A stretch of DNA of 38,361 bases from the NCBI GenBank assembly GCA_016838825.1, contig JAEHKU010000007.1:1-38361 (forward strand), read 5' to 3'. This DNA comes from Nitrosopumilales archaeon (GTDB lineage: Archaea > Thermoproteota > Nitrososphaeria > Nitrososphaerales > Nitrosopumilaceae). Made by a program: the position numbers and the translations under genes. The stretch's first letter is position 1, and every line of letters starts with the position of its first letter. Shown piece by piece: positions 14,605-18,923 of this stretch. The notes below the pieces were generated by a model. The model was given only the letters and a program-made list of their open reading frames with translations. It searched no databases and was not told the origin of the DNA.

Positions 14605-15234
14605 TTGGACTTGCAGTTACTAATCAGAGGCATAGAGGGAGTTACCCAAGGAGAAATTTCTGCAAAGGATTTTAGTATTGTCACTAAAACAGATGAAGAA
14701 ACTGCGAAAAATATTCTTAACAATTTCGTAGAAAATGGAATTGGTTTTTTTGAGAATGGTCTTACGTATTTTAAAGACGGTGACAAACTCAAGTCAGCAC
14801 TTTTCGCTATTAATAATGGTGCATTATTCGAAGATGCCTCTGCACTAATTAACTGGAAGGAATTCGAGGCATTAGTTTTGGAGATTTTATATGCTTTAGG
14901 TTTTCAATGTACAAAAAATATGATTCTTACAAAACCAAGAATGGAGATAGACGTCATAGGGAAAAAACTAGGAGTAACAGTGTTAATTGATTGCAAACAC
15001 TGGCAAAGGTTAAACAATTCACTGTTACAAAAAGTAGTAAAAAAGCAGATCGAGCGAACAAAATTTTACCTAAAAAAAGTAAAATCCAACGTAGCAATTC
15101 CAGTAATCGTAACGTTACATGATGAAAGAGTGAATTTTATAGATAATGTTCCAATTGTACCAATCTCACAACTTCATTCTTTTCTTGAGGATTTTTACGG
15201 AAATATGGATAAGTTGAATGCCATTAAAACATAG
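14605..15234 (+). CDS. Mrr-like restriction endonuclease-fold protein
   Basis: A 209-residue protein with a C-terminal PD-(D/E)xK nuclease domain of the Mrr type. INWKEFEALVLEILYALGF (residues 82-100) supplies the family's first helix with E88. EIDVIGK gives D116, and VLIDCKHW gives D129 and K131, the nuclease active-site lysine. The N-terminal ~80 residues are helical (SAKDFSIVTKTDEETAKNIL) and may form a winged-helix-like substrate-recognition domain. Related proteins cut methylated or branched DNA, but no methyltransferase or ATPase partner is adjacent, so restriction is not established; a repair role is equally possible. TTG start, with the TATA element 25 nt upstream. The 3' end overlaps the convergent DUF2070 gene by 11 bp. 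Confidence 0.75.
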   Translation: MDLQLLIRGIEGVTQGEISAKDFSIVTKTDEETAKNILNNFVENGIGFFENGLTYFKDGDKLKSALFAINNGALFEDASALINWKEFEALVLEILYALGFQCTKNMILTKPRMEIDVIGKKLGVTVLIDCKHWQRLNNSLLQKVVKKQIERTKFYLKKVKSNVAIPVIVTLHDERVNFIDNVPIVPISQLHSFLEDFYGNMDKLNAIKT

Positions 15235-16963
15235 TAAAAAAGAAGAAAGCTGTTGTTGCAATCAAAAATGCCTTTGTAATATTCATAGCCTTGTCTAGCG
15301 AACGTGAATATTCTTCAAACTGCTTTGAGCCCATAACTTTGACATCACTTTGGTTTTCAATTAGTTCAAAAGAGGCTGGCTCGATTTTTTTTTCAGCTTT
15401 TTTTGCTGTGTCTAGAAACCAATCTGCAATTTGTTTTGATTTAGATATACTTCCAAACGGGTGGTAACCTTGCTTATTATGTACTCTAAATGGAGAGTAG
15501 TGTGTATCTGATGTACATATTTCTAACAAATTGTATCCGCTTGATGAAAAATGATTTACCACGTCCTCTCTTACACCATTTTTCATATTGTTAGAATCAG
15601 CCCATCCAATAAAATATTTCTCACCGTTAATTTTTAAACATAGAATTCCAATACCTCCCATCCCAAGTTCAGGCACATTCAAATTCATTCCTTGTGAATT
15701 TGCGTAACCGATTTCTATTGGAAAAGTCTCTTTTGTCATTAAAGTGTCTAAATTGGATTTTGCCGCTTTAAGAAGATCATCTGAATCATTACTTGAAATT
15801 GTTTTTCCCATCGCATTATGACTATCTACAATCAAAACTTTTTCAAACCCTCTGTTCTTGGCATAATGTTCAATTTCGTTTTTAACATAAAGTGGAAGAT
15901 CTTCCATTCCATGTGGTGAAAGTGATAAAATAAGAACCACGATTTTATCAAAAAGAATTCCAACTACACGTGTTTTGTTTACTTGGACAGTTACAGGTAT
16001 TGTACATAGTCGACCTTGATGTGTAACATAACTATTAGCAAAACTTTGAATGTAAATTTCTACTTGTGCTTTGGATGGAAGATTAAGAGAGTGATCAGAA
16101 ACACTATGGAGTATCATAGCTGACGAATTCAAATTTTTATAAATTAGGTAGGTAATGTTACTTCCGCCAATGGGATGAAATGGACCTGGATGAATATCTG
16201 GTAGAACAAATCTAAAATCATTATTTTTTGTGTATAGTCTAATTTGAGATGTTGAGACTTTGGATGGATGTGAACGTTCATCCATCAATAATTCCATTTC
16301 AGTTGGTTGGTTCTGAGAGAGAGCAGAAATGTACGCTTGTAAAAATTTGTGGGTGCTTAAAAGTTTGGGTTTTCCAACTCTATCTGTTATAAAAGACCAA
16401 GCTGTTCCAAGTACTAAAAAGACTGCACCGTAACTTAGTGCCTGCCAATTTGTAAGCATCGATTCCCAATTAGCTACTGGTACTAACGCCAAGAACATCA
16501 AAAATGGTTGTATAAAACACACAACCCAAGCCATCATGATTCGAGTTCCTAACACAGATGTAAAAATTCCTATTCTAAAACTTGCAAATAGAAACATGCC
16601 TACTGTAATGTACATAGGCAATTGTTCTGTATTAGAAAACAACGAAGTAGATACTAATCCTGCTAGAAGCGTTAACAACCATAAAATGTTTCCAAATAGT
16701 GATGCGTGTATTGACTTGGAATATTCTTTTTTCTTTGTAAAAAGTGAATCAAGGTATTGGGTGGCTAACAGTATGACTATCACTGGTACCAATACAACAA
16801 AAAATTGATCATCATTTTTTAAATAACCAAACACAGTAGTTGCTACTATAGCAGAAACTACAACAACTGAAATTATTAGAGACTGATAATGTACAAAAGG
16901 ATTGAACAGTGTTAGCTTATAGCGTTTCGCAATACTAGTAACATTGTCTGAAGATTCTTTCAT
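15224..16963 (-). CDS. DUF2070 family membrane protein
   Basis: A conserved archaeal membrane protein. I choose ATG 16963 (579 aa, MKESSDNVTS) because its ATG overlaps the Sec61 beta stop as ATGA; the longer frame from 16990 would run through the end of Sec61 beta. The first ~200 residues hold about six to seven transmembrane helices. The large soluble C-terminal part has conserved His/Asp motifs (HPGPFHPIGGSN, HSVSDHSLN, DSHNAMG, TSDTHYSPF) that could form a metal site. A last transmembrane segment lies at the C-terminus. The activity is unknown. The overlap with Sec61 beta suggests co-translation and perhaps a role linked to protein export, which is inference. Confidence 0.85.
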   Translation of the reverse strand: MKESSDNVTSIAKRYKLTLFNPFVHYQSLIISVVVVSAIVATTVFGYLKNDDQFFVVLVPVIVILLATQYLDSLFTKKKEYSKSIHASLFGNILWLLTLLAGLVSTSLFSNTEQLPMYITVGMFLFASFRIGIFTSVLGTRIMMAWVVCFIQPFLMFLALVPVANWESMLTNWQALSYGAVFLVLGTAWSFITDRVGKPKLLSTHKFLQAYISALSQNQPTEMELLMDERSHPSKVSTSQIRLYTKNNDFRFVLPDIHPGPFHPIGGSNITYLIYKNLNSSAMILHSVSDHSLNLPSKAQVEIYIQSFANSYVTHQGRLCTIPVTVQVNKTRVVGILFDKIVVLILSLSPHGMEDLPLYVKNEIEHYAKNRGFEKVLIVDSHNAMGKTISSNDSDDLLKAAKSNLDTLMTKETFPIEIGYANSQGMNLNVPELGMGGIGILCLKINGEKYFIGWADSNNMKNGVREDVVNHFSSSGYNLLEICTSDTHYSPFRVHNKQGYHPFGSISKSKQIADWFLDTAKKAEKKIEPASFELIENQSDVKVMGSKQFEEYSRSLDKAMNITKAFLIATTAFFFFTMF

Positions 16964-17124
16964 GGTGCTAAGAATATATCCATAAGCCAAGAGACTACAA
17001 TTAGCCCAGTTGGTATACTGACGATAATTTTTGGGTCTATACGATATCCTTTGGTTTCGTCTTCAAAGAATCTTAATAGTCCCGCGCTTGATGCAGGTAG
17101 TGGTGCGCCCTTTTTGCTACTCAT
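16960..17124 (-). CDS. Preprotein translocase subunit Sec61 beta
   Basis: A 54-residue tail-anchored subunit of the SecYE-beta protein-conducting channel in the cytoplasmic membrane. The sequence starts MSSKKGAPLPASSAG, followed by LLRFFEDE and a conserved Asp-Pro motif (IDPKIIV). One transmembrane helix runs from about residue 33 to 52. This pattern (basic, disordered head; FFEDE; DP; helix) is characteristic of archaeal Sec61 beta. The start is ATG 17124 and the stop is TGA 16960-16962, overlapping the ATG of DUF2070. A TATA-like AGTTTTTATC at 17151-17160 lies ~30 nt upstream. It is short and easily missed by automated gene calls. Confidence 0.9.
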   Translation of the reverse strand: MSSKKGAPLPASSAGLLRFFEDETKGYRIDPKIIVSIPTGLIVVSWLMDIFLAP

Positions 17125-17166: not shown

Positions 17167-17517
17167 TTATTTCTTTTTCATCTTGTCTATAATCTCAATA
17201 AGTGAGTTTATGGATCTTAAAATCTCTTGTTGTTTTTCATGATCAGACTCACCGTAGAGATCTTCAGAGAGTAATTTCAGTTTTTTTTCTAGTATTTCAA
17301 GCGATGATTTAGAGGAATTACTTGATGAATTAGTTGCAACATCTAATTCAGATCTTTTTTCTGGTTCTCGACCACAGTTTACACAAAATGCAAGACCATC
17401 TTTCATAACACGAACGCCTTTACAATAGGGACAAGGGTTCTCAGAAAGAGTAGCTCCTTTTAGTAGCATTTCAACAGCTTTTTTTGTCAGATTCTTTGTC
17501 ACGAAATTTATTTTCAA
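17167..17517 (-). CDS. Zinc-ribbon protein of the SSSCA1 (Sjogren autoantigen p27) / UPF0148 family
   Basis: A 116-residue protein. The N-terminal region has the family hallmark MLLKGATLSENPCPYC, and a four-Cys zinc ribbon follows (CPYC at ~33-36, CVNC at ~50-53). A Ser/Asn-rich linker leads to a C-terminal coiled-coil (SLEILEKKLKLLSEDL to the Lys-rich end). The human homologue was described as a centromere-associated autoantigen; the archaeal role is unknown. The start is TTG at 17517. It lies upstream of sec61 beta on the same strand, 42 bp away, and is divergent from the aIF1 gene. Confidence 0.85.
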   Translation of the reverse strand: MKINFVTKNLTKKAVEMLLKGATLSENPCPYCKGVRVMKDGLAFCVNCGREPEKRSELDVATNSSSNSSKSSLEILEKKLKLLSEDLYGESDHEKQQEILRSINSLIEIIDKMKKK

Positions 17518-17614: not shown

Positions 17615-17923
17615 ATGGCAGTTATCTGCAACACATGCGGACTCCCTGAAGATTTATGCGCCTGCGGCGAACTTGATAAAGATAATCTCAAAATTGTTAT
17701 TCGAATGGAAGAGAGGCGTTTTAGGAAAAAAGGAACTATGATTGAAGGATTCGATCCTAAGATGACCGATATGAAGAGTGTTGTAAAGCAACTGAGGTCA
17801 GCTTATGCGTGTGGTGGTGCTGCCAAAGAAGGCTATATTATTTTGCAGGGTGATCATCGAGATACTATTAAAGACACGCTTGTCAAGATGGGATTTTCCG
17901 AGTCCAGTATAGAAGTACATTAG
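17615..17923 (+). CDS. Translation initiation factor aIF1 (SUI1 family)
   Basis: A 102-residue factor that binds the small ribosomal subunit and controls start-codon choice. The N-terminus has a Cys cluster (CNTCGLPEDLCACGE), a zinc-ribbon-like extension found in archaeal versions. The SUI1 core follows: IRMEERRFRKKGTMIEGF with the basic loop that touches mRNA and tRNA, then KSVVKQLRSAYACGGAAKEG, and ILQGDHRDTIKDTLVKMGF. The length is normal. It starts with ATG at 17615. The CPBP protease gene begins 7 bp after its stop and is probably in the same transcript. Accurate start selection matters in this genome, where TTG starts appear frequent. Confidence 0.93.
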   Translation: MAVICNTCGLPEDLCACGELDKDNLKIVIRMEERRFRKKGTMIEGFDPKMTDMKSVVKQLRSAYACGGAAKEGYIILQGDHRDTIKDTLVKMGFSESSIEVH

Positions 17924-17930
17924 AAAGACA

Positions 17931-18923
17931 TTGCAAAAATATGACAAGGCCCTTCAGGTTCTTGTAATTCCCTATTCTGCGTTAGTTTCAATAATTTTTG
18001 GTATGATGATTATTTCATTTCCTCTTGGTGCATATATCGTTTTTAATTCGGATGTTGGTCAAGAAATCAATTTTGAATATCCACTAGACGATTTTCACAT
18101 ATTTCTTGGGGGTATAAGCTATGAATTTCCAATACCATTTGAACTAGGTGACGTTTTTATCATTTTATGGTGCGCATATTTGGTCTTGTTTGCCATGTGC
18201 ACTATTGGCCCAAAGAAGAATTTCATAAAGTCTCTTTTTTCATTAATGAGTCATAGCAAAGCCGACGAAAAACATAATTCCATGGTAACTATGATAACAT
18301 GGTTTTCGATTCTTGTAATAGTATCTATTGCCGTTGAATTAGTTCAACAACAAGGTGGGATAGATATACAGCCACCTCAGTTTACAAATGACCTTAAACA
18401 ATTCTTTGATGTTACTCTAGCTCCTATTATTGAGGAACTTGGGTTTCGTGTAATGTTAATTGGTCTTCCATTATTTGCAATCTTTGCACGTAAAGGATCA
18501 TTCTCATTTTTCTTAAAATCTATTTGGCATCCGTCTAGAAATCTTCACGTTACAAACTACAAAATAGCTCTAACACTGATTATTGGTGTTGGAATATTCT
18601 TTGGATTTTCTCACATAATTTCTGCTGAAGCTTGGAGTATTGGAAAATTTGCACAAGCTGCAGTTAGTGGCTCGATAATAGGTTGGGTGTATTTTAGATA
18701 CGGACTTGCACCAGCAATTTTAGTTCATTGGGCAACAAACTTTTTCATCTTTTCCTATGCACTAATCATTTCTGACATTAGTCAGATTTCAGTTGAAAGT
18801 GCTTTTTCAAACTCATTTATGCAAGCTACTGAAATACTGCTAATTATTACGGGATTTTTGTCGATTATTATACTTGTTCTAAATTTTATGAATACAAAGA
18901 AAGAAGAAAGATTACAGTTGTAG
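17931..18923 (+). CDS. CPBP-family intramembrane metalloprotease
   Basis: A 330-residue polytopic membrane protein with about eight transmembrane segments. The CPBP (Abi/Rce1-like) signature is complete: E168, E169 and R173 in IIEELGFR, H228 in FGFSHII, and H266 in ILVHWATNF. Rce1 relatives cut prenylated C-termini in eukaryotes; prokaryotic members have varied or unknown substrates, including self-immunity to bacteriocins. The start is TTG at 17931, 7 bp after the aIF1 stop. The 3' end overlaps the convergent TFB gene by 12 bp. A substrate cannot be deduced from the sequence. Confidence 0.88.
   Translation: MQKYDKALQVLVIPYSALVSIIFGMMIISFPLGAYIVFNSDVGQEINFEYPLDDFHIFLGGISYEFPIPFELGDVFIILWCAYLVLFAMCTIGPKKNFIKSLFSLMSHSKADEKHNSMVTMITWFSILVIVSIAVELVQQQGGIDIQPPQFTNDLKQFFDVTLAPIIEELGFRVMLIGLPLFAIFARKGSFSFFLKSIWHPSRNLHVTNYKIALTLIIGVGIFFGFSHIISAEAWSIGKFAQAAVSGSIIGWVYFRYGLAPAILVHWATNFFIFSYALIISDISQISVESAFSNSFMQATEILLIITGFLSIIILVLNFMNTKKEERLQL

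What the first reader, a model, noticed from the sequence alone, without database searches (positions are those of the whole stretch)
15224..17124. Sec61 beta translationally coupled to DUF2070
The 54-codon Sec61 beta gene ends in TGA overlapping the ATG of DUF2070 (ATGA, 16960-16963). DUF2070 has many membrane helices and conserved His/Asp motifs but no known function. Coupling to a translocon subunit suggests a role at the translocon, such as processing or quality control of membrane proteins.
Basis: inference. Interest (0 to 1): 0.55.

Follow-up and report, generated by a model that had tools for sequence, protein, structure and literature searches.

The report
Sec61 beta–linked membrane hydrolase, DUF2070
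An archaeal gene of unknown function that sits right behind a protein-export gene looks like a membrane-anchored relative of zinc enzymes that cut fats (neutral ceramidases), with its parts in a rotated order; the pairing with the export gene is real in this group of archaea but does not by itself show that the two proteins work together.

Summary
Sec61 beta (16960-17124, minus) and DUF2070 (15224-16963, minus, 579 aa) overlap by ATGA. The exact overlap is ordinary: 7 of 39 own-family genomes have it, 32 have 3-9 bases between the genes. The adjacency is conserved: 39 of 39 own-family genomes with DUF2070 and 21 of 21 examined in other families of the order. Across a phylum sample the genes lie within 1.3 kb in 58 of 94 genomes, but often with an inserted gene, or convergent or divergent; in 21 they are at least 19.9 kb apart. 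Other phyla could not be surveyed.

The soluble domain of DUF2070, probably cytosolic and held by 6+1 membrane helices, has the neutral-ceramidase fold (VIA Z 15.4-16.6; next entry 6.1). Profile comparison says its three repeat units stand in circularly permuted order (E about 1e-9 rotated, 2e-6 native); the structural alignments do not settle this. Two invariant histidines (H258, H488) fall on the two zinc histidines of ceramidase; the Glu and Tyr ligands are not matched. Best reading: a membrane-bound zinc hydrolase, probably acting on lipid or acyl-amide substrates. A translocon role is possible but not shown; two of four archaeal control genomes lack DUF2070.

The parts
16960..17124 (-). 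Sec61 beta translocon subunit, 54 aa
   Evidence: Pfam Sec61_beta 48.8 bits over cut-off 27; NCBIfam PRK01253 51.1 bits, below its cut-off of 55
15224..16963 (-). DUF2070 membrane protein, 579 aa
   Evidence: Pfam DUF2070 434 bits, residues 12-577
16960..16963 (-). ATGA stop/start overlap
   Evidence: ATG at -4 in 7 of 39 own-family genomes
16376..16894 (-). six predicted membrane helices of DUF2070 (residues 24-196), N terminus predicted cytosolic
   Evidence: AF2 secondary structure; hydropathy peaks and alternating K/R content of the loops
15320..16279 (-). soluble domain (residues 229-548) with neutral-ceramidase fold, three repeat units R1 229-326, R2 327-425, R3 433-548, in circularly permuted order relative to ceramidase by profile comparison
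16190..16192 (-). invariant H258 (HPGPF motif), aligned with the second zinc histidine of the ceramidase family
   Evidence: invariant in 42 of 42; alignment
15500..15502 (-). invariant H488 (TDTH motif), aligned with the first zinc histidine of the ceramidase family
   Evidence: invariant in 42 of 42; alignments
15230..15328 (-). C-terminal membrane helix (residues 546-578)
   Evidence: AF2 secondary structure and hydropathy
17167..17517 (-). zinc-ribbon protein (Auto_anti-p27 family), possibly first gene of the same unit, 42 bases upstream of Sec61 beta
   Evidence: Pfam 40.9 bits; a relative directly upstream of Sec61 beta on the same strand in 21 of 34 own-family loci, elsewhere within 4.5 kb in 6, not found there in 7

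Best explanation
DUF2070 is an integral membrane enzyme. Six N-terminal helices and one C-terminal helix hold a probably cytosolic domain that is a distant, circularly permuted relative of neutral ceramidase, a zinc amidase. The unit order R1-R2-R3 of DUF2070 corresponds to units 2-3-1 of ceramidase. H258 and H488 are the likely zinc ligands, with the nearby conserved motifs (E354/D355, D380/H382/N383, D456/N458/N459, H291) completing the site. Most likely it hydrolyses an amide or ester bond of a membrane lipid or lipid-linked molecule at the inner face of the membrane. In the order of this archaeon it is probably made from one short unit with Sec61 beta, and in many relatives with a zinc-ribbon protein, so its amount would follow that of the translocon subunit. 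Shown by computation: the adjacency, the ceramidase fold of predicted models, and the permuted profile match. Inferred: co-expression, the cytosolic side, the zinc site, the hydrolase activity. Guessed: the lipid substrate.
For: Fold: the domain-only AF2 model (locus L071, pLDDT 91.9, pTM 0.92) matches the three neutral-ceramidase entries at Z 16.6, 16.3 and 15.4 (272-276 of 356 residues, 3.8-4.0 A); the next entry has 6.1. Foldseek's top hit is 2zws, E 2.7e-6, probability 1.00. The full-length window model gives the same three on top in VIA (Z 12.2, 12.2, 10.7; next 7.6). Sequence: hhalign of 42 DUF2070 against 15 archaeal PF04734 proteins gives 88% and E 3e-6. Ten unrelated families give E 0.074-0.41, reversed profiles 0.55-0.56. 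Permutation: R3 matches ceramidase unit 1 (E 5.9e-8) and R1 matches unit 2 (7.7e-5). Orders in which R3 is followed by R1 give E 4.7e-9 and 7.6e-9; the other four give 5.8e-6 to 9.9e-6. The rotation scan peaks at E 1e-9 against 2.3e-6 for the native order, and alignment A4 repeats the pattern. H258 and H488 pair exactly with the family's invariant H183 and H88. Topology. Linkage.
Against: No PF04734 match at E up to 0.1 in the Pfam scan. Ceramidase is not among the 50 Foldseek rows shown for the full-length model, and for the domain model the Foldseek superposition is poor (TM 0.40, rmsd 13.1). The second DUF2070 alignment gives a weaker profile match (26%, E 7e-4). The ranges VIA reports do not settle the permuted order: 316-536 on 2-298 for the window model suggests R2-R3 on units 1-2, and 26-336 on 29-490 for the domain model could also be read in native order. 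R2 matches unit 3 only at E 0.13 and unit 1 better, at 0.003. The Glu and Tyr zinc ligands of ceramidase do not pair with invariant DUF2070 residues: E363 pairs with H351, three to four residues from E354/D355, and Y393 with T388. Ceramide is not known from these archaea (established knowledge), so the substrate is a guess. The cytosolic side rests on a simple hydropathy and charge count.
Confidence: 0.6

Rival explanations
1. DUF2070 is a translocon-associated factor: its hydrolase domain processes or clears nascent membrane proteins emerging near SecYE-beta, and co-translation with Sec61 beta delivers it there.
For: Adjacency in 39 of 39 own-family and 21 of 21 other examined genomes of the order, and within 1.3 kb in 58 of 94 genomes of the phylum sample. 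The fold is that of an amidase, and amide bonds include peptide bonds.
Against: DUF2070 is not found in two of four archaeal control genomes, both of which have SecY, nor in 7 of 101 phylum genomes, of which 5 have a Sec61 beta match over the cut-off. It is at least 19.9 kb from Sec61 beta in 21 of 94. SecY lies on another contig.
Confidence: 0.2
2. The proximity is inherited housekeeping gene order without a functional tie: both genes belong to an old neighbourhood (SHMT, MazG-like, beta-lactamase-fold, Alba, OB-fold genes) that has been rearranged locally.
For: The pair is convergent in 7 and divergent in 8 of 58 linked genomes, and separated by a gene opposite to Sec61 beta in 62 of 67 named loci. 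Other neighbours recur near Sec61 beta too: MazG 39 of 67 and SHMT 25 of 67.
Against: In the own order the two are same-strand neighbours in all 60 genomes examined, with -4 to +9 bases in the own family; that is more than drifting gene order usually keeps.
Confidence: 0.3
3. The domain has the ceramidase fold but no catalytic activity; it is a ligand-binding or scaffolding domain.
For: The Glu and Tyr zinc ligands are not clearly retained.
Against: H258, H291, D355, N383, N458, N459, D486 and H488 are invariant over 42 sequences at 16-60% identity to the window protein, as expected for a catalytic site.
Confidence: 0.15

Closest known systems
Neutral/alkaline ceramidase family (PF04734; Pseudomonas aeruginosa 2zws/2zxc, human 4wgk)
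   Same: Same fold of the soluble domain in predicted models (Z 15-17); two invariant histidines at the zinc-histidine positions; profile-level similarity
   Different: Circularly permuted unit order by profile comparison; anchored by seven membrane helices with the domain probably cytosolic; Glu and Tyr ligands not clearly kept; no PF04734 profile match
DUF2070 (PF09843; recalled, not from a call: COG3356, named in the COG database as a predicted membrane-associated lipid hydrolase of the neutral ceramidase superfamily)
   Same: Full-length member, 434 bits
   Different: No function was found in the searches made: two papers hold the word DUF2070, both on other subjects by their listings, and none holds COG3356. 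The circular permutation and the Sec61 beta linkage are what is added here
NylC-type Ntn amidases and archaeal S-adenosylmethionine synthetase
   Same: Weak fold resemblance (best NylC rows Z 7.6 and 5.6; synthetase Foldseek E 8e-4 and 2e-4)
   Different: Far below the ceramidase match; the synthetase superposition fails (TM about 0.1)

Membership tests
DUF2070 (PF09843) | Pfam profile over the curated cut-off | tested here: met
   434 bits, cut-off 30, residues 12-577
Sec61 beta (PF03911) | Pfam profile over the curated cut-off | tested here: met
   48.8 bits, cut-off 27
Sec61 beta (NCBIfam PRK01253 equivalog) | score over the curated cut-off of 55 | tested here: not met
   51.1 bits; just under
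Neutral ceramidase (PF04734) | Pfam profile match | tested here: not met
   only PF09843 reported at E up to 0.1
Neutral ceramidase (PF04734) | fold of the catalytic domain | tested here: met
   Z 16.6/16.3/15.4, next 6.1; Foldseek 2zws E 2.7e-6 but TM 0.40; predicted models only
Neutral ceramidase (PF04734) | order of the structural units | tested here: not met
   profile match is best in rotated order; structural alignment ranges do not settle it
Neutral ceramidase (PF04734) | two zinc histidines | tested here: met
   H258 and H488 pair with invariant H183 and H88 of the archaeal family; metal binding itself not tested
Neutral ceramidase (PF04734) | glutamate and tyrosine zinc ligands | tested here: inconclusive
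   conserved E354/D355 lie 3-4 residues off; the Tyr column pairs with T388
Neutral ceramidase (PF04734) | secreted or extracytoplasmic location | tested here: inconclusive
   charge count predicts a cytosolic domain; a crude method
Neutral ceramidase (PF04734) | amidase activity on N-acyl lipids | not testable with these tools
   needs an enzyme assay
Translocon-associated factor | gene linked to Sec genes across lineages | tested here: inconclusive
   58 of 94 linked within 1.3 kb in one phylum sample, 21 far apart on one contig, 13 on different contigs, 2 without a Sec61 beta hit
Translocon-associated factor | present wherever the translocon is | tested here: not met
   two of four archaeal controls have SecY but no DUF2070 match; no match in 7 of 101 phylum genomes, 5 of them with Sec61 beta over the cut-off
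Translocon-associated factor | physical association with SecYE-beta | not testable with these tools
   needs an experiment

The most novel reading that the evidence does not exclude
A circularly permuted, membrane-embedded, cytosol-facing zinc amidase of ceramidase fold serves at the archaeal Sec translocon. It would cut acyl-amide or peptide bonds of substrates as they enter the membrane, with its dose set by co-translation with Sec61 beta.
Probability: 0.12. Interest if true: 0.8.

Novelty: new variant of a known kind. Interest (0 to 1): 0.45.

Why it matters
DUF2070 is a common archaeal membrane protein family (94 of 101 genomes of this phylum sample) for which the searches made here found no described function. 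Assigning it a rotated ceramidase-type zinc site turns it into a testable enzyme: metal content, two histidines to mutate, lipid and acyl-amide substrates to try. If it does work beside the translocon, archaea would couple lipid or acyl-amide hydrolysis to membrane-protein insertion. A circular permutation that places both ends of a soluble enzyme at the membrane would also be a clear case of how such enzymes become membrane-embedded.

Tried and rejected
Sequence search of solved structures with the DUF2070 profile found nothing (best E 0.43). A single-protein scan of viral contigs, which finds close relatives only, found none. The idea that the ATGA overlap itself is the conserved feature was rejected (7 of 39). 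That Sec61 beta and DUF2070 always form one operon was rejected outside the order. A Ceramidase_alk gene 1.3 kb from Sec61 beta in G050 and G093 (one family, DUF2070 elsewhere) looked like a replacement for DUF2070, but it overlaps the end of a 383-aa gene by 20 bases, as in an operon of its own, and was noticed in these two genomes only; set aside as coincidence. Methionine adenosyltransferase, Foldseek's top hit for the full model, was rejected on superposition, TM 0.09. The membrane part gave only weak matches (RND pumps, Z 5-6) and was left unassigned. Families absent from the VIA lists are not excluded by them.

Literature: DUF2070 (2 papers, on rust mitochondrial genomes and a tick virus; only the listing was seen); COG3356 (0); 'neutral ceramidase superfamily' (0); Sec61beta with archaea and gene neighborhood (0). 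Searches were seen as listings with the starts of abstracts. Three papers were opened: PMC5898192 (passages; DUF2070, ceramidase, Sec61, lipid hydrolase 0 times), PMC6393860 (passages and section 5; ceramidase, Sec61, translocon, COG3356 0 times) and PMC9258230 (term search; DUF2070, ceramidase, Sec61, PF09843 0 times).

Label error: the line headed 'column-shuffled E-values' prints hhalign probabilities (0.0-1.7%), not E-values. An earlier count said that H258 is one column off the zinc histidine; reading the printed alignments from the line end, shows that they pair exactly.

Full report
What is there. On the minus strand, Sec61 beta (16960-17124, 54 aa) runs into DUF2070 (15224-16963, 579 aa) with a four-base ATGA overlap. 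Both assignments exceed Pfam's cut-offs. A zinc-ribbon protein of the Auto_anti-p27 family lies 42 bases upstream on the same strand (17167-17517), so the unit may have three genes. A relative of it lies directly upstream of Sec61 beta on the same strand in 21 of 34 own-family loci, elsewhere within 4.5 kb in 6, and was not found there in 7.

How far the linkage goes. Of 101 phylum genomes, 94 have DUF2070. With Sec61 beta positions, the profile matches lie within 1.3 kb of each other in 58 of the 94: 43 same strand with Sec61 beta upstream, 7 convergent, 8 divergent. In 21 they are at least 19.9 kb apart on one contig, in 13 on different contigs, and in 2 no Sec61 beta was found. By family, 15 of 29 have at least one linked genome. 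Six of the linked Sec61 beta genes (family f6) score below the Pfam cut-off; two of them, read in L045 and L064, match a profile built from the loci themselves. In the own family, 39 of 39 genomes have DUF2070 with Sec61 beta directly upstream, the DUF2070 start lying 4 bases before to 9 bases after the Sec61 beta stop; 7 of 39 have ATGA. In other families of the order, 21 of 21 examined genomes have the same arrangement, with ORF gaps of -55 to 390 bases. One further genome with a split DUF2070 (G149) was not examined, and G141 and G143 have no DUF2070 match.

Named loci. The 80 loci are titled mostly Bathyarchaeota, Bathyarchaeum or Bathycorpusculum, with a few uncultured archaeon, Crenarchaeota, Nitrososphaerota and one Methanomethylicia; L071 at least is also in the unnamed sample. 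Sec61 beta was recognised in 67; the 13 others, several on short contigs, were dropped. In 65 of 67 it is upstream on the same strand, in 2 on the opposite strand. In 62 of 67 a gene of about 95 codons lies between the two, on the strand opposite to Sec61 beta; one copy scanned has no Pfam match. So the linkage exceeds chance, but outside the order it is neighbourhood more than translational coupling.

Limits of the linkage argument. The control genomes carry DUF2070 in Haloferax volcanii and Sulfolobus acidocaldarius but not in Methanocaldococcus jannaschii or Methanosarcina acetivorans, while SecY rings in all four. SecY of this genome is on another contig. Other neighbours recur near Sec61 beta as well, such as a MazG-like gene (39 of 67) and SHMT (25 of 67) in the named loci. 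Those loci were found through DUF2070, so its own frequency there is no unbiased count. Other archaeal phyla could not be reached.

What DUF2070 is. In 42 sequences H258, G260, H291, D355, N383, N458, N459, D486 and H488 are invariant, apart from the start methionine. Hydropathy and K/R content predict six N-terminal helices, a cytosolic soluble domain and a C-terminal helix, in line with the secondary structure of the AF2 model of the window protein (pLDDT 82, pTM 0.78). VIA-align puts neutral ceramidases 2zxc, 4wgk and 2zws on top (Z 12.2, 12.2, 10.7; next 7.6); the 50 Foldseek rows shown for the full model hold no ceramidase. A domain-only model of a Bathyarchaeal relative (pLDDT 91.9, pTM 0.92) gives Z 16.6, 16.3 and 15.4 with 272-276 aligned residues at 3.8-4.0 A, the next entry having 6.1, and Foldseek then ranks 2zws first (E 2.7e-6, probability 1.00, though TM 0.40 and rmsd 13.1).

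Independent sequence evidence. Profile comparison of DUF2070 with 15 archaeal PF04734 proteins gives 88% and E 3e-6; with the second DUF2070 alignment it gives 26% and E 7e-4. The soluble domain contains three similar units (R1-R2 E 0.0015, R2-R3 5.8e-4, R1-R3 0.066; against the membrane part 0.53-0.95). R3 matches ceramidase unit 1 (5.9e-8) and R1 matches unit 2 (7.7e-5); R2 matches unit 3 only at 0.13, and unit 1 at 0.003. Of the six unit orders, the two in which R3 is followed by R1 reach 4.7e-9 and 7.6e-9, the other four 5.8e-6 to 9.9e-6. A rotation scan peaks at 1e-9 (starts 349-409) against 2.3e-6 for the native start. The second alignment repeats the pattern (2.9e-7 against 3e-4 to 7e-4). 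Ten unrelated families give 0.074-0.41, reversed profiles 0.55-0.56, and 20 column shuffles probabilities of at most 1.7%. The rotated domain aligns over 255-290 columns at E 1.5e-9 to 3.3e-8, against 1.2e-5 and 2.2e-5 for the native order. H258 pairs with H183 and H488 with H88 of the archaeal family, which correspond to H204 and H97 of the P. aeruginosa enzyme by the alignment; that these bind zinc is recalled. The Glu and Tyr ligands are not matched by invariant residues.

Against the permutation. The structural alignments do not show it. For the window model VIA's range (316-536 on 2-298) suggests R2-R3 on units 1-2; for the domain model (26-336 on 29-490) both a native and a permuted reading fit. 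The three-unit pseudo-symmetry allows several superpositions, and no residue-level structural alignment was available.

Reading. The fold assignment is strong, the permutation well supported at profile level only, and the zinc site plausible. Activity and substrate are inference. From memory, and from no call, the COG database already names this family a predicted membrane-associated lipid hydrolase of the neutral ceramidase superfamily; the searches made here found no paper that says so. The translocon role remains possible, most of all in the own order, but the evidence favours an envelope enzyme that is co-expressed with Sec61 beta over a translocon component.

Noticed in passing
window 17167-17517: Zinc-ribbon (Auto_anti-p27) gene 42 bases upstream of Sec61 beta on the same strand; a relative is directly upstream in 21 of 34 own-family loci.
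   Followed up: partly
L095:3706-3993, L022:909-1196, L059:4596-4949: A protein of about 95-117 aa lies between Sec61 beta and DUF2070, opposite to Sec61 beta, in 62 of 67 named loci; the L095 copy has no Pfam match, and by eye it resembles an Sm-like RNA-binding protein.
   Followed up: partly
window 14605-15234: An Mrr_cat-domain gene converges on DUF2070 and overlaps its 3' end by 11 bases.
   Followed up: no
L214:5887-7179, L240:4479-5771: In one family where DUF2070 is not linked to Sec61 beta, a Ceramidase_alk gene lies about 1.3 kb from Sec61 beta.
   Followed up: partly
L140, L145: Sec61 beta lies 2.1-3.2 kb from DUF2070 in convergent orientation in two Bathyarchaeal contigs, suggesting a local inversion.
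   Followed up: no
window 17615-18923: A SUI1-domain gene followed by an Rce1-like membrane protease on the plus strand, divergent from the Sec61 beta unit.
   Followed up: no
L210, L213: Where DUF2070 is unlinked, a CBS-domain gene overlaps or abuts Sec61 beta on the same strand.
   Followed up: no
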